Below are positions 473 through 44,700 of a DNA stretch of 64,000 nucleotides, piece after piece; within the stretch, counting starts at the first letter, position 1; each line of letters begins with the position of its first letter. The stretch covers positions 1,178,001 to 1,242,000 of the forward strand of contig OW203749.1 in the NCBI GenBank assembly GCA_934045075.1. The letters are read 5' to 3'. A program made the translations under genes and the position numbers. The stretch comes from Yponomeuta sedellus (lineage: Eukaryota; Arthropoda; Insecta; Lepidoptera; Yponomeutidae). A model generated the notes under the pieces. It was not told the origin of the DNA, made no database searches, and saw only the letters and a list, made by a program, of their open reading frames with translations.

Positions 473-3052
473 CACGCCTCATCTCGGTATAAATTTACTT
501 TTTAAAGTATTTCCAGAAATAAGCTGAATCTTTAAATTACCTACAATAGTTACCTTGTATCGTACAGCTGGCAAATCCGCTGCTTTTCGAGTTTGCCGCT
601 CGCCAGCTCCAATTCGTGCGCATCTGCACGCATTTTTGCGTCGCGGCCTTGGCTGCGCGCCACGCCTCATCTCTCGGTATCAATTTACTGTTTAAAGCAT
701 TTCCAGAAATAAGCTGTCTCTACATATTACCTACAATAGTTACCTTGTATCGTACAGCTGGCAAATCCGCTGCTTTTCGAGTTTGCCGCTCGCCAGCTCC
801 AATTCGTGCGCATCTGCACGCATTTTTGCGTCGCGGCCTTGGCTGCGCGCCACGCCTCATCTCTCGGTATCAATTTACTGTTTAAAGCATTTCCAGAAAT
901 AAGCTGTCTCTACATATTACCTACAATAGTTACCTTGTCATCGTACAGCTGGCAAATCGGCTGTTTTTTAGTGTATGCAGACTTAAATTGCCACAAACTA
1001 GCTCCAATTCGTGCGCAATTGCGCGCTTTTTGGCGTCGCGGCCTTGGCTGCGCGCCCAGCCACCCAAGGCACGCCTCATCTCGGTATAAATTTACTTTTT
1101 AAAGTATTTCCAGAAATAAGCTGAATCTTTAAATTACCTACAATAGTTACCTTGTCATCGTACAGCTGGCAAATCCGCTGCTTTTCGAGTTTGCCGCTCG
1201 CCAGCTCCAATTCGTGCGCATCTGCACGCATTTTTGCGTCGCGGCCTTGGCTGCGCGCCACGCCTCATCTCTCGGTATCAATTTACTGTTTAAAGCATTT
1301 CCAGAAATAAGCTGTCTCTACATATTACCTACAATAGTTACCTTGTCATCGTACAGCTGGCAAATCGGCTGTTTTTAGGGTTCCGTACCTCAAAAGGAAA
1401 AAACGGAACCCTTATAGGATCACTTTGTTGTCCGTCTGTCCGTCCGTCCGTCCGTCTGTCAAGACCCTTTTTCTCAGGAACGCGTGGAGGTATGAAGCTG
1501 AAATTTATATCAATTACTCAAGTCTACTGTCCCTTGAACCTGTGAAAAAATCAAACTTCTAAGCCAACGCAATCAAAAGATACAGCCGTTTATGGCGCAA
1601 ATTTTCGACACTTGCAAGGGAATCAAAACCTACAGGGTGCTTCCCGTGAACTCAGAATCTTGAAATTTGGTACGAAGCAACGTCTTATAGCATAGATAAA
1701 GGAAAAATTACGAAAACCATAAATTTTTAGTTACATCACATAATATTTTTTTTTTTAATAATTTTAAACTTACTACCCATTTCCTCATAAACGCGTAGAG
1801 GTATTAAATTGAAATTCATACCAAATACTCAGGTCTATAATACAGGTTTGTACGGAACCCTCGGTGCGCGAGTCTGACTCGCACTTGGCCGGTTTTTTTT
1901 AGTGTATGCAGACTTAAATTGCCACAAACTAGCTCCAATTCGTGCGCAATTGCGCGCTTTTTGGCGTCGCGGCCTTGGCTGCGCGCCCAGCCACCCAAGG
2001 CACGCCTCATCTCGGTATAAATTTACTTTTTAAAGTATTTCCAGAAATAAGCTGAATCTTTAAATTACCTACAATAGTTACCTTGTATCGTACAGCTGGC
2101 AAATCCGCTGCTTTTCGAGTTTGCCGCTCGCCAGCTCCAATTCGTGCGCATCTGCACGCATTTTTGCGTCGCGGCCTTGGCTGCGCGCCACGCCTCATCT
2201 CTCGGTATCAATTTACTTTTTAAAGCATTTCTAGAAATCAGCTGTCTCTATACATTACCTACAATAGTTACCTTGTCATCGTACAGCTGGCAAATCGGCT
2301 GTTTTATAGTGTATGCAGACTTAAATTGCCACAAACTACTTAGCTCCAATTCGTGCGCAACTGCACGCTTTTTTGCGTCGCAGCTTTGGCTGCGCGCCAC
2401 GCCTCATCTCTCGTATCAATTTACTTTTTAAAGCATTTCCAGAAATAAGCTGTCTCTACATATTACCTACAATAGTTACCTTGTCATCGTACAGCTGGCA
2501 AATCCGCTGCTTTTCGAGTTTGCCGCTCGCCAGCTCCAATTCGTGCGCATCTGCACGCATTTTTGCGTCGCGGCCTTGGCTGCGCGCCACGCCTCATCTC
2601 TCGGTATCAATTTACTGTTTAAAGCATTTCCAGAAATAAGCTGTCTCTACATATTACCTACAATAGTTACCTTGTCATCGTACAGCTGGCAAATCCGCTG
2701 CTTTTCGAGTTTGCCGCTCGCCAGCTCCAATTCGTGCGCATCTGCACGCATTTTTGCGTCGCGGCCTTGGCTGCGCGCCACGCCTCATCTCTCGGTATCA
2801 ATTTACTGTTTAAAGCATTTCCAGAAATAAGCTGTCTCTACATATTACCTACAATAGTTACCTTGTCATCGTACAGCTGGCAAATCCGCTGCTTTTCGAG
2901 TTTGCCGCTCGCCAGCTCCAATTCGTGCGCATCTGCACGCATTTTTGCGTCGCGGCCTTGGCTGCGCGCCACGCCTCATCTCTCGGTATCAATTTACTGT
3001 TAAAAGCATTTCCAGAAATAAGCTGTCTCTACATATTACCTACAATAGTTAC
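473..3052 (-). repeat. Tandem array of exon 2 3' end + splice donor of the CCDC186-like gene
   Basis: Units of about 191 bp repeat to the left of exon 2. Read on the minus strand, each unit holds a decayed copy of the last ~110-120 bases of exon 2 (encoding versions of HELELASGKL...EKQRICQLYD.K), then the donor GTAACTATTGTAGGTAAT, then intron sequence. Decoy donors (plus-strand TTAC start) lie near 550, 740, 930, 1147, 1338, 2078, 2268, 2476, 2667 and 2858; the true donor is at 3050-3052. The 1,528 bp offset between 1-690 and 1529-2218 shows a higher-order duplication that carried along an inserted interspersed repeat. The many short open frames here are by-products of the exon copies. Confidence 0.9.
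1377..1900. mobile_element. Interspersed repeat with GGGTTCCGTA...TACGGAACCC ends, inserted in the array
   Basis: It starts AGGGTTCCGTACC, contains a (GTCC/GTCT)n stretch (1429-1459), and ends TACGGAACCC followed by ACTCGCACTTGGCCGG and a T-run. The uninterrupted site is visible in the array at about 953-970 (GGCTGTTTTTTAGTGTATG), so this is a later insertion into one array unit. Confidence 0.65.
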
Positions 3053-3265
3053 CTTGTTATCGTACAGCTGGCAAATCCGCTGCTTCTCGGCGTGCGCGGA
3101 CTTGAGTTTGCCGCTCGCCAGCTCCAGTTCGTGAGCGGCTGCGCGCTCTTTCAGCGTCGCGGCCTCGGCTGCGCGCCTCGCCTCTATGATGAGCCGCTCG
3201 CCGCCAGCGTAGCGCATCACGGCCGCGTCTTTCTCGCGCTGGGCCTGCTCGACACTCCGGCGCAT
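3053..3265 (-). CDS. CCDC186: CCDC186-like exon 2 (71 aa coiled coil)
   Basis: The acceptor CCGCAG|ATG is the only one that keeps phase 0 with exon 1. Other AG sites upstream give a stop or the wrong phase. The donor is AAG|GTAACT. This exon is the source of the tandem array to its left. Confidence 0.8.
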
Positions 3266-6274: not shown

Positions 6275-6498
6275 TTACTTTAAAAAAATGTCAACTATCT
6301 TGATAGGTCAAGGATTTAAGTGTTTATATACTCTGTGTGTAATGGGTAAAACCATAGGGTAAAACTTTCTTGTGATAGGTACGTCTTCGTATCGAAATAC
6401 ATACTTTACATCAATCTGAAATTTAATATCATTTTTCGAAATTCTAGTAAAATGTAAATATTTTTATTTATATAATGTATACTTCAATAAAAAGACTA

Positions 6499-8690: not shown

Positions 8691-8694
8691 ATTA

Positions 8695-8938
8695 GGTAGT
8701 CAGATTATAAACAGCATATATAAAATAAATATTCATGGACATGTTACAGAGATACTAAGTACAACTACTTGTGTTACAGATGCTAACTCTACGATAGATG
8801 TAATACAATCAATACCCAAGACCCGAGCCAAACAAGAAAAGTTCGCTTCCTAGTTTGACCTGGTCGAGGATCGAACCAGAGACCTTCGGTTTTACAGTCA
8901 GCGTGCTAAACAGCTGCGCCACCGAGTTCATCAAAATT
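8695..8938 (-). mobile_element. tRNA-headed SINE family D, copy
   Basis: On the minus strand it begins with a tRNA-like head holding box A and box B (GGTTCGATCCTCG), then TAGTTTGTCTCGGGTC and a tail. A related copy at 9108-10095 is split by a retrotransposon. Confidence 0.65.
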
Positions 8939-9107
8939 ATAACAAACTACCTATTCAATAATATTATAATTTAATATTATGTTATTTATTAGACCTGGAA
9001 AGCAGGTAAAAACCCTTCCTTTTACGGAACCCTACACTGCGCATAGCTCGACACACACGTGGCTAGTTTTTTAAATTATTATGTGCCTAAACACAATAAT
9101 CTAATAA

Positions 9108-10097: not shown

Positions 10098-10356
10098 AAC
10101 CAATAATCTACAGATTGTAATCTCTGAATGCACTTTAATTACACAACAGGGGGCATTCGGAGATTGCAATAATCTACAATAATCCATGCACTTAAGTCTT
10201 TAGAATACAGCGATAAAAATAATCTACCCAATTAATCTACCAAGTAGCTTTAGGTTTAACGATGAAGGTATTAATGATTCAAAACTAATCACTTTTGTTT
10301 AATCTCTCCAGTTTTGCTGCAGTAGCTAAATATTGCTATGGTTAAAGGTAGGTTAA

Positions 10357-10675: not shown

Positions 10676-10678
10676 CTG

Positions 10679-13677: not shown

Positions 13678-13796
<119 letters not shown>

Positions 13797-16045: not shown

Positions 16046-16064
16046 GCAGTTGTAACGAGCAATC

Positions 16065-16319
16065 ATGAAGGTCGCCATCGCTTTCGTCGGTCTACTGTCC
16101 CTTGCGCTTGCGCAGCCCGCGCAGATCCAGCCCAGGGACACCTGCGAGCTGCAAGGACACCTCCGGGACATCTTGAACCTGGTCAACCAGGATGATGTCG
16201 CCGCCGTCCTCTACAGCTACCTGGACGATCCCGATGTGCAGCAGATCTTCAGATTCATCTTCAGCGAACAGTTCAAGGACCTGTACCTGGCTATCGCTGA
16301 CACGCCCGAAATTTCTGGT
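16065..16319 (+). CDS. Allergen-repeat protein exon 1 (signal peptide + first helices)
   Basis: 85 codons, donor TCTGGT|GTAAGT, phase 0. The open frame runs nine codons into the intron, which are not coding. Confidence 0.9.
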
Positions 16320-23700: not shown

Positions 23701-26700
23701 AGAGTCTCCATGGTTAAGTCTTCTGGACCAGCGAAGCCTTGACTGCTCTTCTCCTATGACGCTGTGATCGACGAAAACATTTCTTACGTTGTTACCTTGT
23801 CGACGTTCCCAGCAGGACAGTCTCCGCGGTCCAGACTTCTGGATTATGACGCTGTGTTCGACGGAAACTTGATCTGGTTCTGTCGGAAAAAGAATTTAAA
23901 TCCTAAGTTTTAAAAATCTAATTGCGGAGATAAGGCCTCGAGTCCTGCGCCAGCTGTGTCTCGGTCGATGCACCCAGCGGGACAGTCTCTGTGGTCGAGA
24001 CTTCTTGACCACCGAAGCCTTGACTGCTCTGCTCCTATGACGCTGTGATCGACGAAAACATTTATTAGGTTGGTACCTTGTCGACGCTCCCAGCGGGACA
24101 GTCTCCGTGGTCCAGACTTCTGGATTACGACCCTGTATTCGACGAAAACTTGATTTAGTTCTGTCGCAAAAACAATTTAAAAACTACGTTTGAAAAGAAC
24201 AAAAGCGGAGATAAGGCCTCGGTTCCTGCGCCAGCTGTGTCTCGGTCGACACTCTGGGATGGTGAGTGATATTTTTAAAAACCGATTTATAAGGTACTGC
24301 GACTCGGCAAACGTAGTGTAGGACGCCGCCCGACCAGGTGGGATGACGATCTGCGAAAAACTGCCGGCAGATGCTGGATGCGGCGAGCTGAAGACAGGGC
24401 GCTGTGGCGCTCATTAGGGGAGGGCTATGTCCAGCAGTGAACTACACAATATAGCCTGATGAAGAAGATTTCAAGACTTTGCTCAAAGTCTATTCGACTT
24501 AACGGAGGTGGAGCTGAGGAGAGGTGGAGGCATTTACTTGAATAAGTATTAGGGGAGGGCTATGTCCAGCAGTGGACTAATATAGCCTGAAGAAGAGTTG
24601 TAACGGTGCAAACCTCTTCACACCATTTTTATTTCTTTTTCTATCTATCATTTTCAAATATTTAAATTTTGTCACACATTCCTTGATTTCCCTCATTTTT
24701 CATCACTACTACTTTACGCTTTGACCAGATCTGACTTTTTTACCTGCTTCTCGGTTTATCCGTTTTTATCCAGTTTTCTGTTTTATTAAAATATTTTACT
24801 ACTAATCTACAAATAAAACCACACCTGAAGTTGTTCCAGTTATACAACGTTCCAGAGTGTAGAGAGCCACGACGACTGCGCCAGATGTGTGTCGGTTTCG
24901 TCAGTTGTGTTCACGTGCCGTCTCTCCCCAGATGGACATCTACCTTCAGACCGCCAGCCCCATAGTGGAGCAGGTCCTGAAGGGCTACAACGGCACCATA
25001 TTCGCATACGGGCAGACGGGCACCGGCAAGACTTACACGATGGCTGGGGGCGGGGGGGCGCCGGAACTGAAGGGCATCATTCCCAACAGCTTCGCTCACA
25101 TTTTCGGCCACATCGCGCAGGCCAAGGACGATGAGAAGTAAGTGTTTAGTTGTGTTGTGAGAGGGAGTGAGTGTGTACAGTGCTACACAAGAAATAAGTC
25201 TCGCGGATGTACCTGCGCAGATGACCAAATTTTGGATGTGTGGCAAGTTGATCGACCAATCAGATAGTTTCATTTTATGGCAGGCCGCGCGCCTTTGTTG
25301 TTATTGGTTGATTTAACGTCATCGATGCAGGTGACTATTAGTTTGGCAATATTAGCGTGAGCGAAATAGGTAGCGCTACTGCTGCAATCAATTCTGCACC
25401 TTAACCGTATCAGTTAAAGATCATGTTGAATGTACTTATAGCTTCGGGTACTTTCGTTACATTTCTTCCTAGTCTGCGCGAACGTAGATTCCCGAAGGGA
25501 CTTTTATGATGTGTAGTACTGTATGAGCGTCCGTTTTTCCGAACGCTTACCGTTCTAAATTTTGCGAATTTGCAGTCGCAATACCACACGCTAACTGTGA
25601 GGGAAAACATCGTGAGGAGACCCGCGGCTTGGTTGGCTCCGCATGTATTGACTAGTCTTTCCTGTGGGCTAGGCCGACTAAGCTGTCAGGGTGGTATAGG
25701 TGCTGGGCAAGCCTACGCCATCTTTAAAACATTCCCAGGCATGTTCGTCGGAGTGATCCCTTCACCCATCTAGTGTGAGTGAGGATACCACTTGACGCTG
25801 TATAAATCATCTCATTAAGTAGATGCAAAAAGGCCAATCATCATCATCACATCACCGTTCTAAAAGTTCCGAATAACGTTGAATCTCTTTAAAATGCGTG
25901 CGACGACTTCTGTGGCGCAACGGTAGCGCGTCTGCCTACCAGGCGAGAGGTTTCGGGTTCGAACTCCGGCTGGGGACAAAGAAAAACACCATAGTGCTTA
26001 GTGCGAGTTTTTTAACTACTCGATCGCGTTAACGTAAACTCATATTTCTATGGCATCGAGGAAGCGCCACCTGGCGACAAGTATGAAAATTAAAATTGCT
26101 GAGTGCGAGTTGTAATGGTTTACGTTGAGAAGTGAACACGTTTACCAGCCAAAACACGAATAAACGCGAGTGCGAGTTGTACTGTGACAGCGTTTTGCCA
26201 GTTCGAACGGTTAACTTACTCATACTCGCTACTCAATGCTCGATTAACGCGGTAGTAAAGTTATTCGATTGGATCTGTCAAACTCGCACTAAGCACTCAG
26301 GTCTTGGACGTTTACAGCTACCCACGCCACAGGGTATCCTAGTGTGGGGCCAAAAGCAGTGTATGCGCCTGTCATTTCTTTTTGTCTTTTTGTTCTTTTT
26401 GTCTGCCGTTTTGTCTTCTTCTTCTTCGGGCTATATTAGTCCACTGCTGGACATTGCCCTCCCCTAATGAGCGCCATAGCGCAAGGTTGTGCCATCATTG
26501 GGGGGTAATGCCCATAATCCCCGCGCTGGGCGTGCGAGTTGGGGATCTCAGTTTGGTGGAATTAGAGATGCAATGTTTTTCTTATGATCGGATTTTATTT
26601 TATATTCTAATACTAGACGTAATTTCAAGAAACTAATTTCATTTTTTTCGTGATTAATCGAGTTTATCATTGTTATTTAATTAAAATTAATATTATTCGG

Positions 26701-29700
26701 CGTGACGTCATATGTTACATACTCTGTGTGTAGGTAGAGATCGCGATTGGATTTGTCTGTGGTTTAGTGTGACATGTGAATGACATCGATGTGTTTGACA
26801 GATGAAGTTGACAGGCCATTGGAAGTTTTTCCACAGAATAACTACTACCACAGACGATTTAACATGTGACGTCATCATAGAGGTCCTCAGAGGTCATATG
26901 AAGGATATTTAAGTATTATTATTTACTCAAAATAAGGCTCATCTTTTATGATAAAAATCTCTTACATTAAAAATTCTGTAGTTTGGATGCTAAGCTCGAA
27001 ACGGTTTTCGACTCAGGCAGTTCACTTCACTTGAGTGAAGTGAAAAAAGTGAATTTCACTTCACTTTTTTTTGCATCCGAATTGTACTGCAGGGGGCGCT
27101 GCTGCCCATCCCCCGCACACATTACAATGACAGAATATAAATACAACGTACAGGATTGTAAATTAAAAAGAAACATGCAAAGAATGCCGCTGTGTGGTGT
27201 CGGCCCAGAGAATAGCACCAACCCAATTCTTCCCGCGGGTGTCGTAAAAGGCGACTAAGGGACACAAACCGGGGGGGTGGGCACCAGCGCCCCCTGCAGT
27301 ACAATTCCACCAAACTGCGATCCCCAACCCGCATGCCCATCGTGGGGATTATGGGCATTACCCCCCAATAATGGCACAACCTTGCGCTATGGCGCTCATT
27401 AGGGGAGGGCTATGTCCAGCAGTGGACTAATATAGCCTGAAGAAGAAGAAGAAGAAGGAATGTCAGTGCACTGCAATGTTTTGTCTAAGCCAACTTAATC
27501 CCTCACCAGGTTCCTGGTGTGCGTGACATATTTGGAGATATACAACGAGGAAGTCCGCGACCTGCTGGGGAACGATCCACACCAGAACCTGGAGGTCAAG
27601 GAGAGGCCCGACATCGGTGTATTCGTCAAGGGACTCACCGGTGAGAATTACAACTTCTTGTTTAACATTTGACGTGAAGAAGTAACATATTTTAAACTTT
27701 CGCGACTTGTACACATAGAATATTTTCGGGGCTTAATCGCGTAGTAATTTATTGCTATTTTACCTCGACGTTTCGACAACGTTACAGTCATCGTGGTCAG
27801 CCGAAGATGCGAACGGGTGCCAACCATCAGATATATATAGTGAAACTTCGAACCTCTTTACAATATTCTCTGTATTACGTAGAGGCAGCGACATTTGGCT
27901 GAAGTAATTTGCATCACTTGCAGCCCCGAGTACCTACTTTGCAGTTAGGTTTTACATCGGTTTTGGCACGGATAGCTCGGTTCGAACGGCATGTGTGGAA
28001 TTTTTAGCGTCTAAATAGGTATTTAAAATAGTCCATAGCACGGGTTAGTGCATTAAAAAGAATATAATCATGTGGGTACAGCGATATCATTCCTATGCAA
28101 AAACCTAACTGCAAAATAACTCTGCTGCAATTGATGCAAATTACTTCAGCCAGATGTCGCTGCCTGTACGTACGTAATACAGAGAATATTTAAAAACCTA
28201 TTTAGAGGCTAAAAATTTCACCCATGCCGGGGTTCGAACCCGCAACCTCTGGCTATCCGTACCAGCCCTCTACCAATTGAGCCAATGGGCGACTCACGGC
28301 ATCAGTGAAATTTCGAACCTCTTTACAATATTCTCTGTATTACGTAAATTAAATTTGTTCCTTAGCACGGGTTAGTGCCTTAAAAATAAAAATAGTGTAA
28401 CAGAGAATATTGTAAAGAGGTTCAAAGTGTCACTGTTGCCGGTGAGTCGCCCCTTAGCTCAGTTGGAAGAGCGCTGGCACGGACAGCCAGAGGCTGCGGG
28501 TTCGAATTCCGGGCATGCGTGGAATTTGTAGCCTCTAAATAGGTTTTTAAAACTATGTAACGGTTCGACACTAATGCCTGTACCTCTGCCCGCAGGCTAC
28601 GTGGTCCATAACGCCGACGAGTTGGAGAAGATCATGTCAGTGGGCAATAAGAACCGGCACATCGGGGCCACGGCAATGAACACGGAGTCCTCGCGGAGCC
28701 ACGCCATCTTCTCCATCACGGTCGAGAGCAGCAAGCGGGGGGAGGACGGCCGGACGCGCGTGCGCATGGGGAAACTGCACCTTGTCGACCTGGCCGTAAG
28801 TGCTGTTTTCGTTGTTCGATGAAACGGGGGGGGGGGGGGAGCGGAGAGCGAGTGCGCATCGAGAAACTAAAACTTATCGCGTATGGGAAAACTGCACCTT
28901 GTCAACTTGGCCGTAAGTGCTGTTTTCGTTGTTCGATGAACCAGGGGGGGAGAGCGCGAACGCATGGGGAAACTGCACCTTGTCGACTTGGCCGTAAGTG
29001 CTGTTTTCGTTGTTCGATGAAACGGGGGGGGGGGGGGGGAGCGGAGAGCGAGTGCGCATCGAGAAACTAAAACTTATCGCGTATGGGAAAACTGCACCTT
29101 GTCAACTTGGCCGTAAGTGCTGTTTTCGTTGTTCGATGAACCAGGGGGGGAGAGCGCGAACGCATGGGGAAACTGCACCTTGTCGACTTGGCCGTAAGTG
29201 CTGTTTTCGTTGTTCGATGAAACGGGGGGGGGGGGGGAGCGGAGAGCGAGTGCGCATCGAGAAACTAAAACTTATCGCGTATGGGAAAACTGCACCTTGT
29301 CAACTTGGCCGTAAGTGCTGTTTTCGTTGTTCGATGAACCAGGGGGGGAGAGCGCGAACGCATGGGGAAACTGCACCTTGTCGACTTGGCCGTAAGTGCT
29401 GTTTTCGTTGTTCGATGAAACGGGGGGGGGGGGGGAGCGGAGAGCGAGTGCGCATCGAGAAACTAAAACTTATCGCGTATGGGAAAACTGCACCTTGTCA
29501 ACTTGGCCGTAAGTGCTGTTTTCGTTGTTCGATGAACCAGGGGGGGAGAGCGCGAACGCATGGGGAAACTGCACCTTGTCGACTTGGCCGTAAGTGCTGT
29601 TTTCGTTGTTCGATGAACCAGGGGGGGGGGGGGGGGAGAGCGCGCGTGCGCATGGGAAAGCTGCACCTTGTCGACTTGGCCGTAAGTGCTATGAAACGAA

Positions 29701-32700
29701 AAGGTTTTTTTCAAAGTAGCGCAGAAACAGCTTGTTTCTGCGGCTTGATGAACGTTACATTTCAAACCAGGTGTCCATTTCAAAATCAAGATAATTTTGG
29801 AGGAAAAATGGACAAAAAACCTCCAAACTTAAGTCTTTTCAATGTCCTTAATTAACAGAGTTTACACAATTTTTACAAAACTAATGCATTTTAATTCCAA
29901 ACATCATTGTCATCTAAATAATTCTTAATATTATACTTTACAAGTGTACTTTACACATTTTTTGAACCGCGTTTCAGTCAAAATATATATCTTCTTGAAA
30001 TACATAAAGAAAAGAGTTTCAATAATAACAATACTTTTGTCTTCACTCCACTTCACCAATCCGGTCTCGACCCCCGTGGAGTATGGCCCATACCTTCCTC
30101 AGCGAAGAGACCCGTGCCCCTCAGTGGGGACATAATGGGTTGCTGATGATGATGTTGATGAAAATGCTTATAGCATTAAGTCCGCCACATTGCCATTGAA
30201 TTTTTCTTACTTATGTGCAATAATAATAATGACTCTTGTGGCAGGGCTCGGAGCGGCAAAGCAAGACGCAGGCGAGCGGCACTCGCCTGAAGGAAGCGAC
30301 GAAGATCAACCAGTCCCTGTCGGTTTTGGGGAACGTGATATCGGCGCTGGTCGACGGGAAGTCCACCCACATACCGTATCGGAACTCCAAGCTCACCAGG
30401 CTGCTGCAGGACTCGCTTGGAGGGAACTCCAAGACTGTCATGGTGAGTATTCTAGAGTATCACTGGAAGGAGACTCGATTGACGGCGTTAGAATGTCACT
30501 GGATAGAGTCGGTTTGCTGCGCTAGAACGTCACTACGAAGAGAGGGCCTGTGGCGCTAGAATTACGTTGGATAGAGTCGGTTTGCGACTCTAGAATGTCA
30601 CTGCAAAGAGTCGGCCTGCGGCTATGTTACTAGAGAGAGTCAGCTGCGGCGCGAAAATATCACTAGATTGTGTTGTTCCCACATTGTTTCTGTGAGTCTA
30701 GCGTCTATGGTTTGCTTTGAAATTGAATGAAATTGAAACGAAACAAGAAATTGCTTTGAGTAATAAGGCCGCCATTTGTACTGTATTTTTTATATAATTT
30801 CTGTTACTGTCATTTCTGTGTACAATAAAGAATCTTCTATCTATTCTATCCATCTAGTTATCTATCTATCTAGCGGTGCCACTAAAATAGCCCTGCAGAT
30901 AGATAGATAGATAAACCATTTATTTGCATTTGCGCTACAGAGAGAGCGCCTGCGGCGCTGGAATGATACTAGCGATCTCCGGCGCCAGAACGATAGAGGG
31001 ACAGCCTATCTACTAGAACTACGGTACTACATTGTTCTTGAAAGAAGGGAAGAGCGGGTGATCGTGCTCTTCCGCTATAAAGGGAAATTTCCCGCCAGGC
31101 AGATCGTATGCCTGGGGACGGCCGGTCCAACTGTTGTTAGTCGGACGTTATATTTATGGTATGTCATTGAAACACTTTGATTGCGCGATGCAGGAATGTT
31201 GGAGTTTGTAGTGCGCGCGCAGAGTTGACATGTGCTCGCCACAAAAGAAAGAGGGAGATACAGTCGACCTGCGCGCTCAAATGTCATTAGACAGAAAGAG
31301 AGGTGCTATTTAATCACAACTCGTCCGCAGATCGCCACGATCGGTCCGGCTGACAACAACTACGTGGAAACTATAAGCACTCTGCGCTACGCCAACCGAG
31401 CGAAGAACATTGAGAACAAGACGCATGTTAACAGCGAGCCGGGAGACGCTCTACTCACTAGGCAAGTGATTTATTTTCGATATCAACCCTTGTAAGTCCC
31501 CACTGCTGGGGCACGGGTCTCTTCCTGCATCGCAGGAAGGTTAGGCCATACTCCACCACGGGGGCCAAGTCCGGGTTGGTGGAAGATTGTAAGACAGTGG
31601 CGGGCCTTACTGTCAAAAGTTATCAATCCGCCCATAAGGACTCTGACATGACTTAACGACTGCCATTAAATGACAGCCGGCACCAACGGTTTTACGTGCC
31701 TTGTTAAATAAAGAAATTTTGAAACTGAAACTGACTGCAGGGGGCGCTACTGCCCACCCCCCGGTTTGTGTACCAAAAAAAAGTTGAGAATATTCTTTAT
31801 TGTACACTGGAAAAACAACAAATACAAAATAATCACAAACGTACATAGTACAATTGGCGGCCTTTTTGCCAAAAACAATTTCTTCAAGACAAACTTACGA
31901 TGGAAAGTGGCTGAAGAAAAATACACAAATAAAATGGAATTTAATAAAAAACACAATTCCCAGTATTTAATCATCATCTGCAGTACAATTCCACCGAACT
32001 GCGATCCCCAACCCGCATGACCAGCGTGGGGATTATGGGCATTACCCCCCCAATGATGGCACAACCTTGCGCTATAGCGCTTATTAAGGGAGGGCTATGT
32101 CCAGCAGTGGACTAACGTAGCCTGAAGGATATGATCTTATTTTCAGGAAGTTATTGTTCTTATTATTCCAGGTTCCAACAAGAAATAGAGCAGCTCAAGA
32201 AACAGCTGGAAGAAGCCAACAATGGTAAGATATTTACTGACATACATAGTCTATCCTCGGTACGGCTCGCTATGCTCGGAGTTTCTCTGAAGGACTAAAG
32301 GATAGGATTCGTAACGAATGCATCCGACAGAGAACCAAAGTTATCGACATAGCTCAGAGAATTAGCGAGCTGAAGTGGCAGTGGGCTGGCCATATCTCGC
32401 GAAGAACCGACAACCGTTGGAGTAAGCGTGTTCTTGAGTGGAGACCGCGACTCGGCAACCGTAGTGTAGGACGCCCTCCGACCAGGCGGGATGACGATCT
32501 GCGAAAAACTGCCGGCAGATGCTGGATGCGGCAAGCTGAAGACAGGGCGCTATGGCGCTCATTAGGGGAGGGCTGTGTCCAGCAGTGGACTACATAATAT
32601 AGCCTGAAGAAGAAGATAGTCTATCCAAATCCCACTGCGGTACACGGGGCTTCTCTCAGAGAGAGAGAGAGAAAGAGAGAATATTGGCGTAATCACCACG

Positions 32701-35700
32701 CTTGGCCACCGCAGATGTGCTATTTCAAACGTTGATGCATAAGCCACGTCAGAGGCCTTATGGGCGGCTCGATAACTTCTGACAGTAAGGCCCGCTGTCT
32801 GACAATCCTCTACCAACCCGGACTCGGCTCACGTGGTGGAGTATGGCCTGACCTTCCTGCGATGCAGGAAGAGAGACTCGTGCCCCAGCAGTGGGGACAT
32901 ACAAGCGTTGATATCGGTAACGATTCTGCGACTGTGGCAATGTCATGTGACTGACCGAACCCAAGTCTTAGGCGTAGGACATAAATAAATAAATATTCAT
33001 GGACATATTACACAGATCTCGTTAGCTCTATATTAAGTACAACTAAATGACTTGCAAAAAGGGAGTGTGTAGCGAGTCTTCAAATATCTTTAATGGTATT
33101 TTTATAGCATATTAGAGTACTTTAAACTGTAAACCCAAGAGCATCTGGTAACAAACTGATATGCAGTTTGGCAGAAACAAACTTCTGTATTTTAAAAACC
33201 TATTAAGAGGCTAAAAATAGCCAGAGGTCGCGGGTTCGAATGGGTGGAATTTTTAGCCTCTAAATAGGTTTTTAAAATTGTTTTTAGCACGGGTTAGTGC
33301 GTTAAAAATAAAAATAGTATAAACTTCTGTATTTTTTAATTGAATAAACGTCTTCAATCGATCAATCGGTACAAATCTCTATCTCTGTCCACCTCTCCGA
33401 CATTCTTTTTTTTTCTTCACACTCTCTTACACCCCCCGCCGCCCCGCTCTCACCGCGCCCTGACCCGCAGAGCTGGCTGAGGAGGAAGAGGAGGAGCCCT
33501 CCGAGGAGGAGCTGACCGACGACACCCTCACGGACCCCGAGCTGGAGCAGCTGCAGCCAGACCAGCGGAGGAGGCAGCGGAAGATGCGCCGGGAGGAGAA
33601 GGTGGGGGGGGGGTGAACGGGTGGATGAATGAATAGGAGGAGGCAGCGGAGGATGCGCCGGGAGAAGGTGGGGGGGGGTGAACGGGTGGATGAATGAATA
33701 GGAGGAGGATGCGCCGGGAGGAGAAGGTGGGGGGGGGGGGGGTGAACGGGTGGATGAATGAATAGGAGGAGGATGCGCCGGGAGGAGAAGGTGGGGGGGG
33801 GTGAACAGGTGGATGAATGAATAGGAGGAGGATGCGCCGGGAGGAGAAGGTGGGGGGGGGGTGAACGGGTGGATGAATGAATAGGAGGAGGATGCGCCGG
33901 GAGGAGAAGGTGGGGGGGGGGGGGTGAACGGGTGGATGAATGAATAGGAGGAGGATGCGCCGGGAGGAGAAGGTGGGGGGGGGGTGAACGGGTGGATGAA
34001 TGAAAGAATAAATCAATGAGAAACAAAAAGGCGGCAAGCTGAAGACAGGGCGCTATGGCGCTCATTAGGGGAGGGCTATGTACAGCAGTGGACTACATAA
34101 TATAGCCAGAAGAAGAAACAGAGGAAGAGAAACAAAAAAAATGAATGAATAAATAAATAGGAGGAGGCACAGGAGGCTGCGCTAGAAGGAAAAGGTGGGG
34201 GAGGTAATGGATGAATGAATGAATAAATAGGAGGAGGCACAGGAGGCTGCGCCGGGAGGAGAAGGTGGGGGAGGTTGTGAATGAATGAAACAAATAATAA
34301 ATGAATAGGAAAAAAAAAAATTAAACAGGAGGAAGCACAGGACGCTGCGCCGGCAGGAGAAGGTGGGAGACGTAGTGGATGAATGGGTGAATGAGTGAAT
34401 GAATGAATGAATGAATGAATAGGAGGAGGCACAGGGAGCTGCGCCGGGAGGAAAAGATGGGGGAGGTAGTAGATGAGTGGGTGGGTTAATGAATGAAATA
34501 ATAAATGAATGAGAAAAAAATATTATGAATGAACAAATCAATGAATAGGAGGAGGCACAGGAGGCTCCGCCGCAGCCGGGGTCGCAGTGAATGAATGAAT
34601 GGATAAATAAACGAATAAAGGGAGTTGGGAGAGCGCTGGTACGGTTAGCCAGAGGTCGCGGGTTCGAGTCCCGGCATGGGCGGAATTTTTAGATAGATAG
34701 ATAGATAGAGAACACTTTATTGCACAACCAGAAAAATATTACAACCATGATTCTTAAATCTAAGTAATGTTATACAATTGGCGGTCTTATCGCTAAGAGC
34801 GATCTCTTCCAGACAACCTTTGGATGGAGTGGATTGCATGAAGAATATAGTAATTTAATTAATAAGAATATAGTATTTTAGCCTCTAAATAGGTAATTTT
34901 TAGCCTCTAAATATTAAGTACTGATATCTTTCCTTGCCAGAGAATGTGTGATAGCCATTTAAATATGCAACCACGTCATCTGCATTAGTAACGGTGAAAC
35001 GTTTTGTTTGTCAGAAGAAGCAGTCGCGGGAGAAGGCTCACCAGGCGCGGAAGGTGCTCGAAGAGAAGAAGGCTGAGCTGCAGAGGACCAGGTGAGTGCA
35101 GGCTTCGCAAGCTTGAGAATTATTCTATGACTTGAGAAAAGATGCGCTCGTGGCCTAGGCGAACCGAGTGATTGGAATCAATCACTTGGTTAAGCAACAA
35201 CAGACGCGGTCAGGTACAGGATGGGTGAGCGTCCCGTGACTACCGCTAGTGGCATTTTTCCGAGCGCTTCCGTGCTTCGCAAGGCATGCTAAGCCGTTGG
35301 TGTCGGCTGTCATATAATGGCAGTCGTTAAGCCATGTCAGAGGCCTTATGGACGGCTTGATAACTTCTGACAGTAAGGCCCGCCACTGTCTTACAATCCT
35401 CCACCAGCCCGGACTTGGCCCCCGTGGTGGAGTATGGCCTAACCTTCCTGCGATGCAGGAAGAGACCCGTGCCCCAGCAGTGGGGACATACAAGGGTTGA
35501 TAACGAGAAAAGATAGTCAGAGTGGAGTTTTATTTTTCCACTGCCTTTTTCAGCCTGCTTCGAATTCCTTTAGAGCTTAATGCTATATGTGTTTATATTC
35601 ATTTTATACTCTAAATATAATTTTTAGCCTCTAAATAGGTTTTTAAATTGTCCTTAGCACGGGTTAGTGCATTAAAAATAAAAATAGTATAATCATGTGG

Positions 35701-38700
35701 GTACAGTGATATCGTTCCGATGTTAAACCTAACTGCAAAGTAGGTACTCGGGGCTTCAAGTAATGCAAATTACTTCAGCCAGATGTCGCTGCCTGTACGT
35801 AATACATCAGTAAATTTCACTAATGCCGGTGATTCGCCCATTAGCTCAGTTGGAAAGAGCGCTGGCACGGATAGCCAGAGGTCGCGGGTTCGAATCCCGG
35901 CGTGGGTGGAATTTTTAGCCTCTAAATAGGTTTTTATATTCTTTTTGTTGCACTAACCCGTGCTGAGGGCAAAAAAACCTATTTAGAGGCTAAAAATTCT
36001 GCCCCCGTGGTGGAGTATGGCCTGTGGCGTCTGCGCACGCACAGTTTTGGCGAGGAATCAGTTTCTTCATGTTGTAGCGACCACCGCTCCGCTAGTAAAG
36101 ATGTGTCCGAATTATGTAAAGTGTATTTTCCGTGTGTGTGGACAATAAAAAGTCGTATGTCCGTTGCAGTAAATTGACCTTTAATTTCATCTCCACGTAA
36201 CCCTCTGAGACTATATAGTTTGGTGATAGGCAGGTAGAGCCACTAGACCCAATAGGCCTAACCTTCCTGCGATGCAGGAAAAGACTCGTGCAGTGGGGAC
36301 ATACAAGGGTTGATATCGACTTACTTTTCTCCGTTCTCCTCAATCCCAGGAAACAGCAGGAGGAGCTCAAAGACAAATTGCAGCGTCTCGAATCCAAAGT
36401 CCTGGTTGGCGGTGAGAATCTCCTCGACAAGGCCGAGACCCAGCGCAATCTTCTAGAACAAGCCGCCAAGGAGTTGGAGCAGCGCTCGCAGATAGAGCAG
36501 CGTTTGGAACAGGATCTGCAGAAGCGGGAGGTGAGTGTTGGGACAGACAGACTGACAGACAGACAGCTCGGCTGAACCTTCTAGGGTATCTGATGTCGTT
36601 ATAGAAGCTAATTAGGCAAAGCTGCGATCATGCGAAGTCTTCTAGAACAAGCCGCCAAGCAGTTGGAACTGTAGAAGTGGGAAGTGAGTACTGAACTTCT
36701 GGAGTCTAGATGGTATAAAAACTACAAAAACTAAGCTGAGACCCAGCGCAATCTTCAAGGAGCCAAGGAGTTGAGTGCTTGGTACAGGATTTGCAGAAGC
36801 GGGAGGTGAGTACTGAACTTCTCGAGTCTAGAATTTCGATGGTATAGAATCTAGATAAATACAGTTAAGATTTAGAACTCTTTCCTAGATCGACTCGCGC
36901 CCCAGCAGTGGGAACATACAAGAGTTGATACCATCATAAAAACAGAAACAAACATATTTGTTTACATTTGTAAACATATTGTTTGTTTGTTATAATAATA
37001 AATAACAGTGTTTATCTAGTACTTATAATAATAAATAACAGTGTTTATCTACGTACTTATCTATATTTTATAAAAATATATTTATTAAATATGTATTTTA
37101 ATTGAATACATGCATATATTATTTTTATTTATTTATTTACAGTAAAATATTTGCATGTAGGGTTTATTTTTATATTTAATTTCCTAGTTTAGTTAGAATA
37201 AACGGGCCGCGCTGAAAATCAGCTCCTTTTGAATGATGTGTATTTGAAAACGACGGAAATGAATGGACTGTATGAATGCTATTGAAAACGTAGAAATCCT
37301 CGTAATATTATGATTTAATTAGAAGAAAACATGGGCAGAACCGCTAACTACTTGACAACTAAAAAATATTTCAAAACAAAATCCACTGACATAATTAATT
37401 CTTTTTTAAAACAGATATAAAAACCAAACAGCGAGGAGTTCGCCACAGTATTAATATGTGAATAACGGCACAACGCTGAGCGTGGCACCTTTTGCCAGAG
37501 CCTGTCAATTTAAAATGTGTTTTTCTGAAAAGTGTATGTTGCCTTATCAATTTATCATGTATTTAGATGTACACATTAGTTTTAATTTTCTTTTATGTTC
37601 CTTTTATATCTGGCAACAAACAAAATTTGTCTTTGTCTTTGATATTTGAGACGGAGGAGTCCCTTCACTCCTCCGTGGAGTCTAGAGCTGACACAAGGGC
37701 TTTCCATTTACCTCTGTTCATGGCTAGTGATGGTAGCTCCAGCCAAGTTTTTCCATACTCATTCGTCTCAGGGAGAACCGATCTCCACGTCTGAAACGAT
37801 CTTCCTTGTCAAGCCACCTTCGGGATGTGATGATCGATGATCGGGTCTTCTAAGGGTGTGTCCAAGCCACCAGCATTTAGGTTCCCTGATATCTTGGGCT
37901 ACGTAAAGTAAAGATTTTCAAACAATTTCAATGTTCAACGTGCTAAATAATGCTTAATGAGCACACGATACTCAATCTTCTCCATTTTTTTTGGAAAATG
38001 GCGCGCTTTTCCTTTTCTAAGGGCTGCCATAGACAAAACGAAATTATAGAACAGGTTCTAAATTTGACAGTAATCCGTCGAAGAATAGTTGTTGACCATT
38101 AGTATTTACTTTTTTTTTACAAAAGAGGTTGAAAGTGCAAAAAGTCACGGGACTTATTGACCTGAATCTATCTATATTTGTGTAATAGAAATGTCTGAAC
38201 TAATAATTTCACATAACTTTTCAAAATGGTAAAGAAAAGTTTTATATAGAGCAGGGAGTAGTATTACACTCGTGTACTTTCGGTGAAAACCGAAGCTTAC
38301 TCTAGAGCCCGGGGTATATTCTAAAAGCTAACAGACTCTATAGTCTGTTAGCTTTTAGAATATACCTCGGCTACTATCGGATAGATTCGGATATATTCGT
38401 GTAATAGAAATATCGGAACTAATATGACACTTAGCCCTGGTTTCTCGTACGCAAACAGCCTGTTAATCTACTGTTAACAGTTGTCAGTTGTTTTTTTTGT
38501 ATGCACTTTGCCCAACTGACATCTGTTAACAGTAGATTAACAGCTTGTTAGTGTACGAGAAACCGGGAGGTTAATTTCGAAATAAGAGCAGGAAGTAGTA
38601 TTACACTCGTGTACTTTCGGCGAAAACCGTGGCCTACTCTAGAGCCCGGGGTATATTCTAAAAGCTAACAGACTACGTGTTTTTGTTTTCTTCCGCTGTT

Positions 38701-41700
38701 GGAGTAGACTTTAGTCCGGATTTACTTACGGGTGTTGTTATATCGGAAAAGTCCGACCAGGTTTCGCTCCGATTCGCAGAGCTTAATCATGGTGAGCAGA
38801 GACGGAGCTCGCGTCGTTGGTTGCTTGTCTCACACACTCTGCGAATCGGAGCGAAACCTGGTCGGACTTTTCCGATATAACAACACCCGTAAGTAAATCC
38901 GGACTAAAAGTCTACAATGTGTTGTGCTTACGAAAGTTTTAGTTCAAAAAAGCTGTTGGAGTAGCTAAGAAATAATGGTGCCGCAGCTGACTCCCGTCCT
39001 CTATTGCAGGCCGAGCGGCTGGATCTGGAGGAGCGCTACTCCAGCCTCCAGGAGGAGAACGCAGCCAAGACCAGGAAGCTGAAGCGGGCGGTGCAGCTGC
39101 TCAACTCCGCTAAGGTACTTATTTGTCTAAACTATATACTCGTCAACTCTGTTAATGAATGAAACCAATGAAGCAATCGATTTGATGGTCGGACTATGCG
39201 GTTAGGTCGGCAGGGAGCCCGTTACAATTCAAACTCCAAACTTAGTCCAAGTAGTCTTAGGTAAGATAAGATAAGAATATACTTGTACGCACCAAAAAAT
39301 AATTACAGGGACCATAGTTACAAAAAAAAGAGGTACAATTGGCGGCCTTATTGCTGATAGGCAATAAGGCCGCCATTTCTTCTTCTTCCAGGCAACCTTA
39401 AATCTGAAAGGTTGCTGAAGGAGAAATTGAGACGGGAGTCTTAGTCTAATGTATTAGTCCAGTTCGTCCAAAGGTTGTCTGGAAGAGATCACTTTTAGTG
39501 ATAAGGCCGCCGTCTGTACTCTAAATAGGTTTTTAAATTTGTTCCTTAGCACGGGTTAGTGCATTAAAAATAAAAATAGTATAATCATGTGGCTACAGTG
39601 ATATCGTTCCGATGTTAAAACCTAACTGCAAAGTAGGTAGTCGGGGCTGTAAGTGATGCAATTTGCTTAAGTCAGATGTCGCTGCCTGTACGTAATACAG
39701 AGAATAGTGTAAAGAGGTTCGAAATTTCACTGATGCCGTGAGTCGCCCATTGGCTCAATTGGTAGAGCGCTGGCACGGATAGCCAGAGGTTGAGGGTTCG
39801 AATCCCGGCATGGGTGAAATTTTTAGCCTCTAAATAGGTTTTTAAATTTGTTCCTTAGCACGGGTTAGTGCATTAAAAATAAAAATAGTGTGAACAATAC
39901 AGTGTCAATACATCCTTCATTGTAAACATTTCGATAATAAAATCCCTGAAGATATATTACGTTTGACTGAAACGCGGTTAAAAAAAATATGTTAAGCACA
40001 CTTTGTGAAAAGGGCTACTATAATATAAAGGATTATTTAGATGACAATGCTGTCATGTAAAATGCGTGAGTTTTGTACAAATTATGTAAACTCTGTTAAT
40101 TAACGACTTTGAAAATACTAAGATAGATAGAGAACACTTTATTGTACATAAAAATTTAAATTACACAGATATTTCTTATTTAAAAACCTATTTAGAGGCC
40201 AAAAATTTCACCCATGCCGGGATTCGAACCCGCAACCTCTGGCTATCCGTGCCAGCGCTCTACCAATTGAGCCAATAGGCGACTCACGGCATCAGTGAAA
40301 TTTCGAACCTCTTTACACTATTCTCTGTATTACGTACAGGCAGCGACATCTGACTTAAGCAAATTGCATTACTTACAGCCCCGACTACCTACTTTGCAGT
40401 TAGGTTTTAACATCGGAACGATATCACTGTACCCACATGATTATACTATTTTTATTTTTAATGCACTAACCTCTAAATTTTATTTTTAATTTTAATTTTA
40501 GCCTCTAAATAGGTTTTTAAATTTGTTCCTTAGCACGGGTTAGTGCATTAAAAATAAAAATAGTGTAATCATGTGGGTACAGTGATATCGTTCCGATGTT
40601 AAACCTAACTGCAAAGTAGGTAGTCGGGGCTGTAAGTAATGCAATTTGCTTAAGTCAGATGTCGCTGCCTGTACGTAATACAGAGAATAGTGTAAAGAGG
40701 TTCGAAATTTCACTGATGCCGTGAGTCGCCCATTGGCTCAATTGGTAGAGTGCTGGTACGGATAGCCAGAGGTTGCGGGTTCGAATCCCGGCATGGGTGA
40801 AATTTTTAGCCTCTAAATAGGTTTTTAAACTGTATTGTTCATTGTATTAACCTTTGCCAGCCTAAATCTTGGGATGATGATGAGGATGGTGATGAGGATG
40901 ATGATAGTGATGATGCAATTATCATCTCGGTTCTCTTTCGGACGCATGAACGCATTACCTAGTATTATGGCAGTGGTTTGCTACGTTACAATTCACACTA
41001 GGTGTCCATTTCAAAATCTAGATAGTTTTCGAGAAAAAATGGACAAAAAAACTCCAAACTTACTCTTTTCAAAGTCCTTAATTAACAGAGTTTACATAAT
41101 TATTTTAAAACATAGAACTCGCGCATTGTACTGGCTTTAATTCCAGACATTATTATCATCTAAATAAACTCATTTTATACTAATTTGTTTTTTGCACACG
41201 TTATTTACTTAGTTACCATATTATGCGGAACCTTATTTTCAGCTTATAGTTGGTCATTAAGAACTGTCAATTTCTATGTAAGCTGCAAGTTTCCCAAAAA
41301 GAAATAAATAACTGAATGAACGAAGGAACGAAGGAAGGAACGAACGAACGAACGAACGAACGAACGAACGAACGAACGAACGAACGAACGAACGAACGAA
41401 CGAACGAACGAATGAATGAATGAATGAATGAATGAATGAATGAATGAATGAATATGATGATGATGGTGATGATGATGTCTCCAGGCGGAGCTGGCGGACC
41501 AGCAGCGCGAGCAGCAGCGCGAGATGGAGGGCATCCTGGACAGCATCCGCGCGCTGCAGCGGGAGATACAGCTGGCGGACCTGGTGCTCGACGAGTACAT
41601 ACCCAAGGAGTACCAGGTGACGGGGGGCGGGTGATATATACTGGACGAGTACATACCCAAGGAGTACCAGGTGACGGGGGGCGGGTGATATATACTGGAC

Positions 41701-44700
41701 GAGTACATACCCAAGGAGTACCAGGTGACGGGGGGCGGGTGATATATACTGGACGAGTACATACCCAAGGAGTACCAGGTGACGGGGGGCGGGTGATATA
41801 TACTGGAAGAGTACATACCCAAGGAGTACCAGGTGACGGGGGGCGGGTGATATATACTGGACGAGTACATACCCAAGGAGTACCAGGTGATGACGGGGCG
41901 CGGGGGGCGGTTGATATATATTGGACGAGTACATACCCAAGGAGTACCAGGTGACGGGGCGCGGGGAGCGGGTGATTTATACTGGACGAGTACATACCCA
42001 AGGAGTACCAGGTGACGGGGCCATTCACCAGCAGTGACATTCTCATGACGTAACAATAATTGATTGAATGAATGATTGAATGAATGATTGTTTGCATGAA
42101 TGATTGAATGAATGATTGATTAAATGATTAATTGATTGAATGAATGCTTGATTGCATGAATTCAAGACAAGACAAGACAAATTTTGTTTATTGCCAGATA
42201 TAAAAAGAACATAAAAGAAAATTAAAACTAATGTGTACATTTAAATACATGGTAAGGTAACATACACTTTTCAGAAAAACACATTTTAAATTGACAGGCT
42301 CTCGCAAAAGGTGCCACTGAATGTGAGTGTATAAATACACATCATTCAAAAGGCGCTGATTTTCAGCGAGGCCCTTTTATTCTAACTAAACTAGGAAATG
42401 AAATATAAAAAGAAAGCCTACATGCAAATATTTTACTGTAAAATTTTACTGAATGAATTATTGATTGAATGACTAATTAATTGATTGATTGAATGAGTGA
42501 TTGCATGCATGATTGAATGAATTGTTGATTGAAATAATGAATGATTGAATGAATGATTGATTGATTAATACTCTTCTTGGGGAGTAACACGGTCCATGAT
42601 GATTTTTAGTTATTTACTACGACGAAAGTTGAAACAAAATCATTTTGATGTTTCAACTTTCGTCAAATAAAAAAAATGTATGAGAATCGTATCTCATACA
42701 TTTCATACAATCGGTAGCACATCTGCCTACCATACAAGAGGTGCCGGGTTCGAATCCCGGCTGGGGACAAAAAAAAGCCCAGGTCTTGGATGTTTACATG
42801 TTTGTGATGTCGTTGTTTCTGGTTCCCACGACACAGGGTATCCTAGTGTGGGGCCAGAAGCAATGTATGTGCTTTTATGTAAATGTAATGTTAATGTTAA
42901 TCAGGCGTTACTAGTCCAGCAGTAGACTAATATAGCCCGAAGAAGAAGCAGAAGGCGTTACTTTGCGGAAATCCACAATAGCATTTAAATGTGAAAATAA
43001 CTTTTCTAAATTCCGTCAAAAATCCCACAAGCACCATGCGGTTAGTTAATGCACCGCCCTCCATCCCACTTTTTCAATCAGAAGCAAGACACGAACACAC
43101 TAGGCGTGATCGTTGCAAAGACGAACCGTTTTATAAGACCGTTTTGTGTTCCGCGACGATAGGACCGTTGTACGTTTCATTCTAAAGCAGTGCCAGCGAC
43201 TCTAAAGCAGTGCCAGCGTTTGTTCGTCGCGAGACCAGTCCTTAGATTGTTTGACGCGGATATGTCCTTTAGTGCTATATTAATAGAGCCTAGAACGTAA
43301 TGAGATCATTGCGACGTCGTCGTCGGCTCCTTGCTCGTTCCGTTCGTTTTGGTCTGTGATACAATAAAGTAATCTTTATGTCTATGAGTATACAGTCGAA
43401 TATCGTGTAAAACAACTTATTTTTTCCGATGTTTCGTGATTTCGTCTCGTTCGCACTCGTTTGACCGTCCTCTGCGTCTTGCTCGTTCGAAACCAGTTGC
43501 GAACGAGGACCGTTTCGAGGACCTGTTTTCGTTCCAGTAAAAACGGTTGCGTTTCGTCGTGGAAAAATCGGACAGCGACCCACTCCTAGAACACACCACC
43601 ACCGACACCAATACTTGTGTGAGAAAACACGCGACGCGTTTCGCCTCATTAATTCATTCAGTCAATCGATTTAATAAGCTCAGCGACACAAAGTTGGCCG
43701 TGGCATCCGCAGCCAAAACAATATGATAATAGTCATATACTCGCTTGCTTGTGGCCTAGTCGAACCGAGTGATTGGAATCAATCACTTGGTTTTAAGCAA
43801 CAACAGGCGCGGTCAGGCACCGGATGGGTGACCATCCCGCGACAACCGCTTGTGGCCTTTTTCCGAGCGCTTCCGTGTTTCGCAAGGCACGTTAAGCCGT
43901 TGGTGCCGGCTGTCATGTGATGACAGTCGTTAAGCCACGTCAGACGCCTTATGGGCGGCTTGATAACGTCTGAAAGTAAGGCCCGCCACTGTCTTACAAT
44001 CCTCCACCAACACGGACTTGGTCCCCGTGGTGGAGTATAGCCGATACCTTCCTCAGGGTAGAGACCCGTGTCCCTCGTTAGGGACATAATGGGTTGCTGG
44101 TGATGATCTGGACCGCATGGGCGCTTCACAGCGGGACGTCTAGCCGGCTAACCTCGTGAACGTCACGTCACGTCACGTCACCCCACGTCATGTAACGTCA
44201 CGACTCGTTGCAGGCGCTGATAGAGCAGTACGTGCACTGGAGCGAGCAGCTGGGCGAGTGGCAGGTGAAGTGCGTCGCCTACACCGGGAACAACCTGCAG
44301 CCGCGCCGGCAGCCCAAGACTAAGAGCAAATATGTGAGTGGTTGTCTTTCTTTTTTTCCTCCTTCCTTTCTTCCTTCCTCCCTCCCTAATTCCACCTTCC
44401 CTCGCTCTTTCTCTCTTTCTGTCCCACTCTCTCTCTCTTTTGCTTGCCCGCCCTCCGTCCCTGCCTGATCATCCTTTTTTTTTGTTTTGATTTTTCTCCG
44501 TGATCTGGTTTCACTTTTGTAATGTCCTTCGTAATACCAGTATTCCTGTTCATTACAAGTGCGGAAAGGCTGTCATTGCAAAGAGTTCCGACAAATATCG
44601 ACCCGAGCCGAGGCGCAGCCGAAGGCGAGGGTTGACAGTCGGAACAAGTTGCAATGACGGTTCCGCACGTATACTGAACGACTATTTTTAATACAGTTGC

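What the first reader, a model, noticed from the sequence alone, without database searches (positions are those of the whole stretch)
473..42030. Splice-donor-derived tandem arrays in several introns of two unrelated genes
Seen directly: the intron immediately downstream of an exon starts with tandem copies of [end of that exon + its own 5' splice site + first intron bases]. This occurs in the CCDC186-like gene (minus strand, ~191 bp units, 10 decoy donors) and in Klp64D introns 5 (9 decoys), 9 (9 or more), 13 (7), and in decayed form in 11 and 2. Each array uses a different exon, so this is repeated independent amplification at the same kind of place, not one transposon. The three youngest kinesin arrays all have G-runs just after the donor (G7-16, G8-12, GGGGGGCGGG). 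Inference: donor-proximal G-rich DNA (R-loop or quadruplex prone) may promote local re-replication, and the arrays present many extra U1-binding donors to the splicing machinery. I know of no described class of exon-junction minisatellites like this.
Basis: partly seen in the sequence, partly recalled or inferred. Interest (0 to 1): 0.9.

Follow-up and report, generated by a model that had tools for sequence, protein, structure and literature searches.

The report
Moth exon ends repeated into introns
In two nearby genes of a moth or butterfly, the end of an exon together with its splice signal has been copied in tandem into the following intron at six different exons, far more often than chance allows; gene models of related species show similar copying, but whether it does anything is unknown.

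Summary
In a lepidopteran KIF3A/Klp64D gene (13 donors) and CCDC186, 18 kb away (2 donors in the window), 6 of 15 introns begin with tandem copies of [exon 3' end + 5' splice site + intron start]: 40 decoy donors, 39 with GT, units about 54-281 bp. In the KIF3A gene 5 of 7 local duplications span a donor (expected 0.35; 0 of 200,000 random placements). First donors give an intact KIF3A; extension to the first decoy meets a stop codon in 6 of 6 arrays. Public models of Colias, Operophtera, Bicyclus, Mythimna and possibly Tuta contain translated repeats that end at, or fit, exon 3' ends. G-runs fit only 3 of 6 arrays. Precedents exist (human IFI6; repeats at exon-intron boundaries), so this is a dense new variant of a known kind. 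Most likely: exon-edge duplications tolerated because the proximal donor still works, then amplified like minisatellites. A donor-targeted mutational process is not excluded. The genome-wide test could not be run.

The parts
3053..3265 (-). CCDC186-like exon 2, source exon of array C2; true donor AAG|GTAACT at 3052
   Evidence: model; relatives
1..3052 (-). Array C2: 10 decoy donors (2861, 2670, 2479, 2271, 2081, 1341, 1150, 933, 743, 553), unit about 191 bp, interrupted by a roughly 0.5-kb insert that was duplicated with the array; continues past the window edge
23360..23572 (+).
22490..22612 (+). Acceptor-side copy of [intron end + AG + start of exon a]; a further partial exon-start copy lies at 23273-23304, with an interspersed repeat between
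23573..24260 (+). Decayed donor array of exon a (decoys 23788, 24069; 281-bp period)
28596..28795 (+). KIF3A exon d (exon 5), donor GCC|GTAAGT
28796..29720 (+). Array in intron 5: 9 decoys; alternating 117/119- and 81-bp units (198-bp higher-order repeat), G-runs of 7-16
30484..30622 (+). 34-bp array in intron 6, starts about 42 bp after the donor and does not include it
33471..33601 (+). KIF3A exon h (exon 9), donor AAG|GTGGGG
33602..34620 (+). Array in intron 9: 6 young decoys (about 60 bp apart) and 4 older ones, 9 of 10 with GT
36350..36530 (+). KIF3A exon j (exon 11), donor GAG|GTGAGT
36531..36870 (+). Decayed array in intron 11: decoys at 36684 and 36806
41485..41616 (+). KIF3A exon l (exon 13), donor CAG|GTGACG
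41617..42030 (+). Array in intron 13: 7 decoys, 54-64 bp apart, exon part 0.96-1.0 identical to the true exon

Best explanation
These are exon-edge tandem arrays of minisatellite type. Local tandem duplications whose left end lies in an exon and right end in the following intron arose repeatedly in situ. They survive because the proximal, original donor still defines the exon, so all later copies are removed with the intron. Unequal exchange or slippage then expanded and homogenised the copies (higher-order repeat, near-identical units), while purifying selection held the first, coding copy. Shown: anatomy, non-random position in this gene, intact protein when first donors are used, similar cases in other Lepidoptera gene models. 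Inferred: duplication and exchange as the process, use of the first donor in vivo, absence of a benefit.
For: Joining the first donors of 14 exons gives one open 663-aa KIF3A, mostly 81-85% identical to the full-length Lepidoptera models among the 120 best hits. Extension to the first decoy meets a stop codon in 6 of 6 arrays. The last copies of arrays 5 and 13, and of the young layer of array 9, run on into sequence unlike the unit. Array 5 is a 198-bp higher-order repeat. In C2 the intron part is 0.84-0.99 identical between true copy and decoys, the exon part 0.51-0.75. Monte Carlo: 5 of 7 local duplications span donors, expected 0.35, 0 of 200,000 draws; with two smaller TRF repeats added, 1 of 200,000.
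Against: Tolerance alone predicts many arrays deep in introns; none with units >=50 bp was seen in the KIF3A introns once rows overlapping dispersed or simple repeats were dropped. GC-richness alone does not explain it: 126 of 1,313 overlapping 80-bp windows outside exons and arrays have GC >=0.55 and were not amplified, and acceptors (0.35-0.74) are about as GC-rich as donors (0.41-0.65). So some position bias in mutation seems needed. In Colias the public model joins all eight copies into the coding sequence, so first-donor use may not be universal.
Confidence: 0.6

Rival explanations
1. A mutational process is aimed at 5' splice sites or exon 3' ends, for example through polymerase pausing, R-loops or G-rich structures in germline-transcribed genes, so that duplications start there far more often than elsewhere.
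For: Donors 6 of 15 against acceptors 1 of 15 (Fisher one-sided p = 0.04, two-sided 0.08); G-run >=5 at 3 of 6 array donors and 0 of 9 others (p = 0.044); no unit >=50 bp seen deep in KIF3A introns; similar cases at exon 3' ends in other Lepidoptera models. Some sources name CCDC186 orthologues 'oocyte-testis protein 1'.
Against: An acceptor-side duplication exists at exon 2. Half of the arrays lack a G-run. Both genes lie at one locus, so regional instability is possible. The p-values are marginal and post hoc.
Confidence: 0.2
2. Regional hypermutability: the KIF3A-CCDC186 locus lies in a repeat-prone, for example high-recombination, region, and exons are the seeds.
For: The two genes are 18 kb apart here, and their Mythimna orthologues have consecutive locus numbers. 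All cross-species cases come from these two genes, because only they were searched.
Against: GC-rich non-exonic windows at the same locus were not amplified.
Confidence: 0.15
3. The decoys are kept for a function, such as extra U1 binding, intron retention or nonsense-mediated control.
For: 39 of 40 decoys keep GT; 10 changes in the donor 9-mer against 33.7 expected from the exon flank; decoy use would introduce stop codons.
Against: Copies share ancestry and some flank differences are indel slips, so the expectation is inflated; in the decayed intron-2 array the 9-mer of both decoys has changed. Where arrays were seen in other species they mostly sit at other exons.
Confidence: 0.04
4. Assembly artefact.
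For: Near-identical copies in intron 13; no reads available.
Against: Copies carry distinct variants, older decayed layers and an insert that was itself duplicated; similar repeats in gene models from other species' assemblies.
Confidence: 0.01

Closest known systems
[quoted passage not shown] title seen in reference lists only, paper not held)
   Same: A tandem repeat at an exon end supplies several donors; a passage of PMC4526556 says two downstream repeat units are used as splice donor sites, giving three mRNA species.
   Different: One human locus whose downstream donors are used. Here units are 54-281 bp, at six exons of two genes, and downstream use would hit stop codons. That the IFI6 unit is short is recalled.
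Internal tandem repeats at exon-intron boundaries of human segmentally duplicated genes (De Grassi and Ciccarelli 2009, PMC2812944; outline and passages seen)
   Same: Tandem repeats located at exon-intron boundaries that alter splicing; 27 intron modifications after manual inspection.
   Different: Primate-specific genes in segmental duplications; no donor preference in the passages seen.
Intron gain by tandem duplication (Rogers model; potato RdRp case, PMC4974935; passages seen)
   Same: Tandem duplication across an exon-intron boundary.
   Different: There a new intron forms (in potato from a duplication of intron 3' side plus exon 5' side). Here the existing intron lengthens and no new intron was shown.

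Membership tests
Minisatellite | Head-to-tail copies with homogenisation or higher-order structure | tested here: met
   TRF arrays; 198-bp higher-order repeat; near-identical units in arrays 5 and 13
Minisatellite | Unit of 15-100 bp (range given in the abstract of PMC3618361, listed) | tested here: inconclusive
   met by arrays 13 (54-64 bp) and 9 (young layer about 60 bp), borderline for array 5 (81-119 bp), exceeded by introns 11 (122-153), CCDC186 (about 191) and 2 (281)
Minisatellite | Copy-number polymorphism | not testable with these tools
   no second haplotype or reads
Exon-boundary repeat providing multiple donors (IFI6 type) | Repeat unit contains the exon end and a 5' splice site | tested here: met
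   39 of 40 decoys carry GT at the donor position
Exon-boundary repeat providing multiple donors (IFI6 type) | Downstream donors used in mRNA | not testable with these tools
   no RNA data; a stop codon lies before the first decoy in 6 of 6
Intron gain by tandem duplication | A new intron absent from relatives | not tested
   no relative's genomic DNA was available
Transposon or introner | Same sequence at unrelated sites | tested here: not met
   each array matches its own exon
   acceptor-side duplication at exon 2; 6/15 vs 1/15

The most novel reading that the evidence does not exclude
Lepidopteran germlines carry a mutational process coupled to transcription or splicing that preferentially tandem-duplicates DNA at 5' splice sites. 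It keeps building arrays of surplus donors and occasionally, as the Colias model suggests, turns an exon end into a coding repeat, thereby lengthening introns and seeding protein repeats.
Probability: 0.2. Interest if true: 0.87.

Novelty: new variant of a known kind. Interest (0 to 1): 0.62.

Why it matters
If common genome-wide, this is a route by which introns lengthen and coding repeats arise, a natural experiment on how the spliceosome picks the first of up to ten or more near-identical donors, and a clue that splicing or transcription shapes where germline duplications occur. It also affects annotation: several public lepidopteran gene models contain translated copies.

Tried and rejected
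Transposon origin: rejected, each array matches its own exon. GC-richness alone: not sufficient in this window. G-runs as general cause: 3 of 6 arrays only. Selection on decoy donors: inconclusive; copies are not independent, flank divergence was set to 0.15 by hand for three CCDC186 decoys shifted by an indel, and one intron-9 decoy with a 3-base slip was left uncorrected (0.47), which inflates the expectation. Intron phase: all six arrays sit in phase-0 introns (10 of 15 donors are phase 0; p = 0.042, post hoc); unexplained. Restriction to Lepidoptera: 7 of 143 lepidopteran-like models against 0 of 63 other KIF3A models hold internal repeats, p = 0.10, not significant; unnamed models were assigned by identity; the looser scan also flags an acidic low-complexity stretch in one mosquito model (P0067), not counted. 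The model lists are capped (120 best of 7,971 KIF3A hits; 20 and 74 CCDC186 hits from about 8,000 scored candidates each). The first protein self-comparison printed no repeats, though P0002 has some, and was replaced by word matching. Papilio machaon P0001 (one whole exon repeated) and P. xuthus P0142 (136 identical residues) may be model or assembly artefacts and are not counted as support although they are among the 7; a second Operophtera repeat (ending NITLK) lies before the fuller copy and is ambiguous.

Rows dropped before the Monte Carlo: 57 of 145 local repeat pairs overlapping dispersed repeats or microsatellites, among them one pair in intron 11 (38248-38337 and 38585-38674, 94%); and from the remaining rows, by judgement, a 39-bp pair at 34875/35601 that matches a repeat tail and the simple repeats at 42055-42569. 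Intergenic local duplications (8720-9224, 8816-10098, 54339-54481) lie outside the gene and were not entered. The TRF repeats of 33 bp (36990) and 20 bp (43181) were added; TRF rows with units of 16 bp or less were not. The allergen-gene junctions were not modelled and are not in the 15 + 15.

Papers: in the listings of ten searches (only named Lepidoptera) I saw no description of such arrays in Lepidoptera. The library holds open-licence papers only.
Full report
What the window is. The + strand carries a KIF3A/Klp64D gene, coding exons from 23360 to 45619 (the start of the gene upstream was not located). Joining 14 exons at canonical signals (one GC donor) gives one open 663-aa reading. It is mostly 81-85% identical to the full-length Lepidoptera KIF3A models among the 120 best hits, so the source is a moth or butterfly that is not itself among those hits. 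On the - strand lie two exons of a CCDC186-like gene, 18 kb away, with a small allergen-type gene between. The Mythimna separata orthologues have consecutive locus numbers (PYW07_013023 and _013024), and so have those of M. loreyi. The two genes are therefore not independent samples of the genome.

The arrays. Six exons are followed by copies of their own 3' end, donor and first intron bases: CCDC186 exon 2 (10 decoys, the array runs past the window edge), KIF3A introns 5 (9), 9 (10), 13 (7), and, decayed, 11 (2) and 2 (2). Copy positions came from an ungapped probe; one spurious low match (33809) was dropped, and positions shifted by small indels were corrected by hand. GT is kept in 39 of 40 decoys and the whole donor 9-mer in 34 of 40. 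Array 5 alternates 117/119- and 81-bp units as a 198-bp higher-order repeat. Array 9 has a young and an older layer. Array C2 contains an insert of roughly 0.5 kb that was duplicated with the array; that it is an interspersed element is my recall, as no other copy lies in the window.

More than chance. With a 50-base donor probe, 4 of 15 donors have at least one downstream match of 36/50 or better, and the two decayed arrays score 33 and 35; the other nine score 23-25. For acceptors searched upstream, 1 of 15 reaches the threshold, the others score 21-27. An unfiltered control in the same call, which includes the arrays and dispersed repeats, has 208 hits in 3,126 positions. Of 7,085 KIF3A control positions outside arrays and dispersed repeats, 2.3% reach 32/50, all in three microsatellites; donors reach it 5 of 13 times (binomial p = 7e-6, approximate because positions overlap). 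Seven local duplications with units >=34 bp were kept in the KIF3A gene (dropped rows are told in Tried and rejected). Five span a donor and six span a splice junction; random placement gives 0.35 and 0.66, and neither count was reached in 200,000 draws. Adding the 33-bp and 20-bp repeats found by TRF gives 1 of 200,000 for donors and 0 for junctions.

The acceptor of KIF3A exon 2 has an upstream copy of [intron end + AG + exon start] at 22490-22612 and a partial exon-start copy at 23273-23304, with an interspersed repeat (copies elsewhere in the window) between. Exon-edge duplication is therefore not donor-only. The donor excess (6/15 vs 1/15) has a one-sided p of 0.04 and a two-sided p of 0.08.

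Other species. Translated copies show up in public gene models. Colias croceus CCDC186 (P0190) has eight copies of 38 residues ending DRNK, separated by [10 protein letters not shown], as expected if AAG|GT... is read through. Operophtera brumata (P0139) has four copies ending DAYK, the first three followed by VRNGVEV. Bicyclus anynana (P0162) has four copies ending LQR, the first three followed by YSTAV..., which fits AG|GTAC in phase 2. Tuta absoluta (P0188) has two copies with an uncertain boundary. Mythimna separata KIF3A (P0002) has two separate duplications that end at the 3' ends of exons 11 and 14 (window exons j and m) as aligned to the window's exons. The donor readings are inferred from protein, and the exon ends in these species were not seen in DNA. 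Such models mostly reveal only arrays that can be read or spliced in frame. Counts: 7 of 143 lepidopteran-like models have internal repeats, two of them doubtful; 0 of 63 other KIF3A models, leaving out one low-complexity stretch; p = 0.10.

How it probably works. The first donor of each exon gives the conserved protein. Reading on to the first decoy meets a stop in 6 of 6, so decoy use would at best be non-productive in the window's species. Most decoys carry the same donor 9-mer as the true site (34 of 40), so any choice among them must depend on position. In C2 the intron part of the true copy is 0.84-0.99 identical to the decoys but the exon part only 0.51-0.75 (fixed-length slices with indels lower the latter); in array 5 the figures are 0.97-1.0 (last copy 0.36) and 0.79-0.92; array 13 shows no such contrast. 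This fits exchange among copies with the coding half held by selection, or amplification from an already diverged copy. Tolerance explains why such duplications survive but not why none with units >=50 bp was seen deep in the KIF3A introns. GC-rich sequence is available outside exons and arrays (126 of 1,313 windows) and was not amplified. A mutational bias toward exon edges, perhaps donors, is therefore likely, and its cause is open. G-runs mark 3 of 6 array donors and none of 9 others.

Known kinds. The title of Turri et al. 1995 (seen in reference lists; [quoted passage not shown] De Grassi and Ciccarelli 2009 (PMC2812944, outline and passages) report repeats at exon-intron boundaries in human duplicated genes. 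The potato RdRp paper (PMC4974935, passages) describes a duplication of intron 3' side plus exon 5' side that made a new intron. The kind is known. The density here, the donor excess and the recurrence across Lepidoptera I did not see in the listings of ten searches or the passages read.

Limits. No RNA, reads or relatives' DNA were available. All cross-species evidence concerns the same two genes and capped lists of gene models.

Noticed in passing
46661-48679 (+): Single 672-aa open reading frame matching the DNA-mediated transposase of solved structure 6PQN (E 3.6e-118 over residues 184-671; that this is a Transib transposase is recalled), with a weaker match to RAG1 (Pfam E 2.8e-5, below its cut-off): probably a Transib-type element just downstream of KIF3A.
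   Followed up: partly
59531-62608 (+): Open reading frames resembling pieces of a DDE-type transposon; one of three scanned matches DDE_3 (E 1.6e-4, below cut-off).
   Followed up: no
16056-17465 (+): Insect allergen repeat / nitrile-specifier-like gene, apparently in two exons (Pfam Ins_allergen_rp), between CCDC186 and KIF3A.
   Followed up: no
introns after KIF3A exons a, d, h, j, l and CCDC186 exon 2: All six donor arrays lie in phase-0 introns although only 10 of 15 donors are phase 0 (p = 0.042, post hoc).
   Followed up: partly
28913-29682 (+): In array 5 the 81-bp units read AACCAG where the other units read AAACGG, after a T-rich stretch, so they carry an acceptor-like CAG upstream of an exon copy and donor: possible cryptic exons.
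   Followed up: no
41314-41452 and 42061-42564 (+): GAAC- and TGAA-type simple repeats flank exon 13 on both sides.
   Followed up: no
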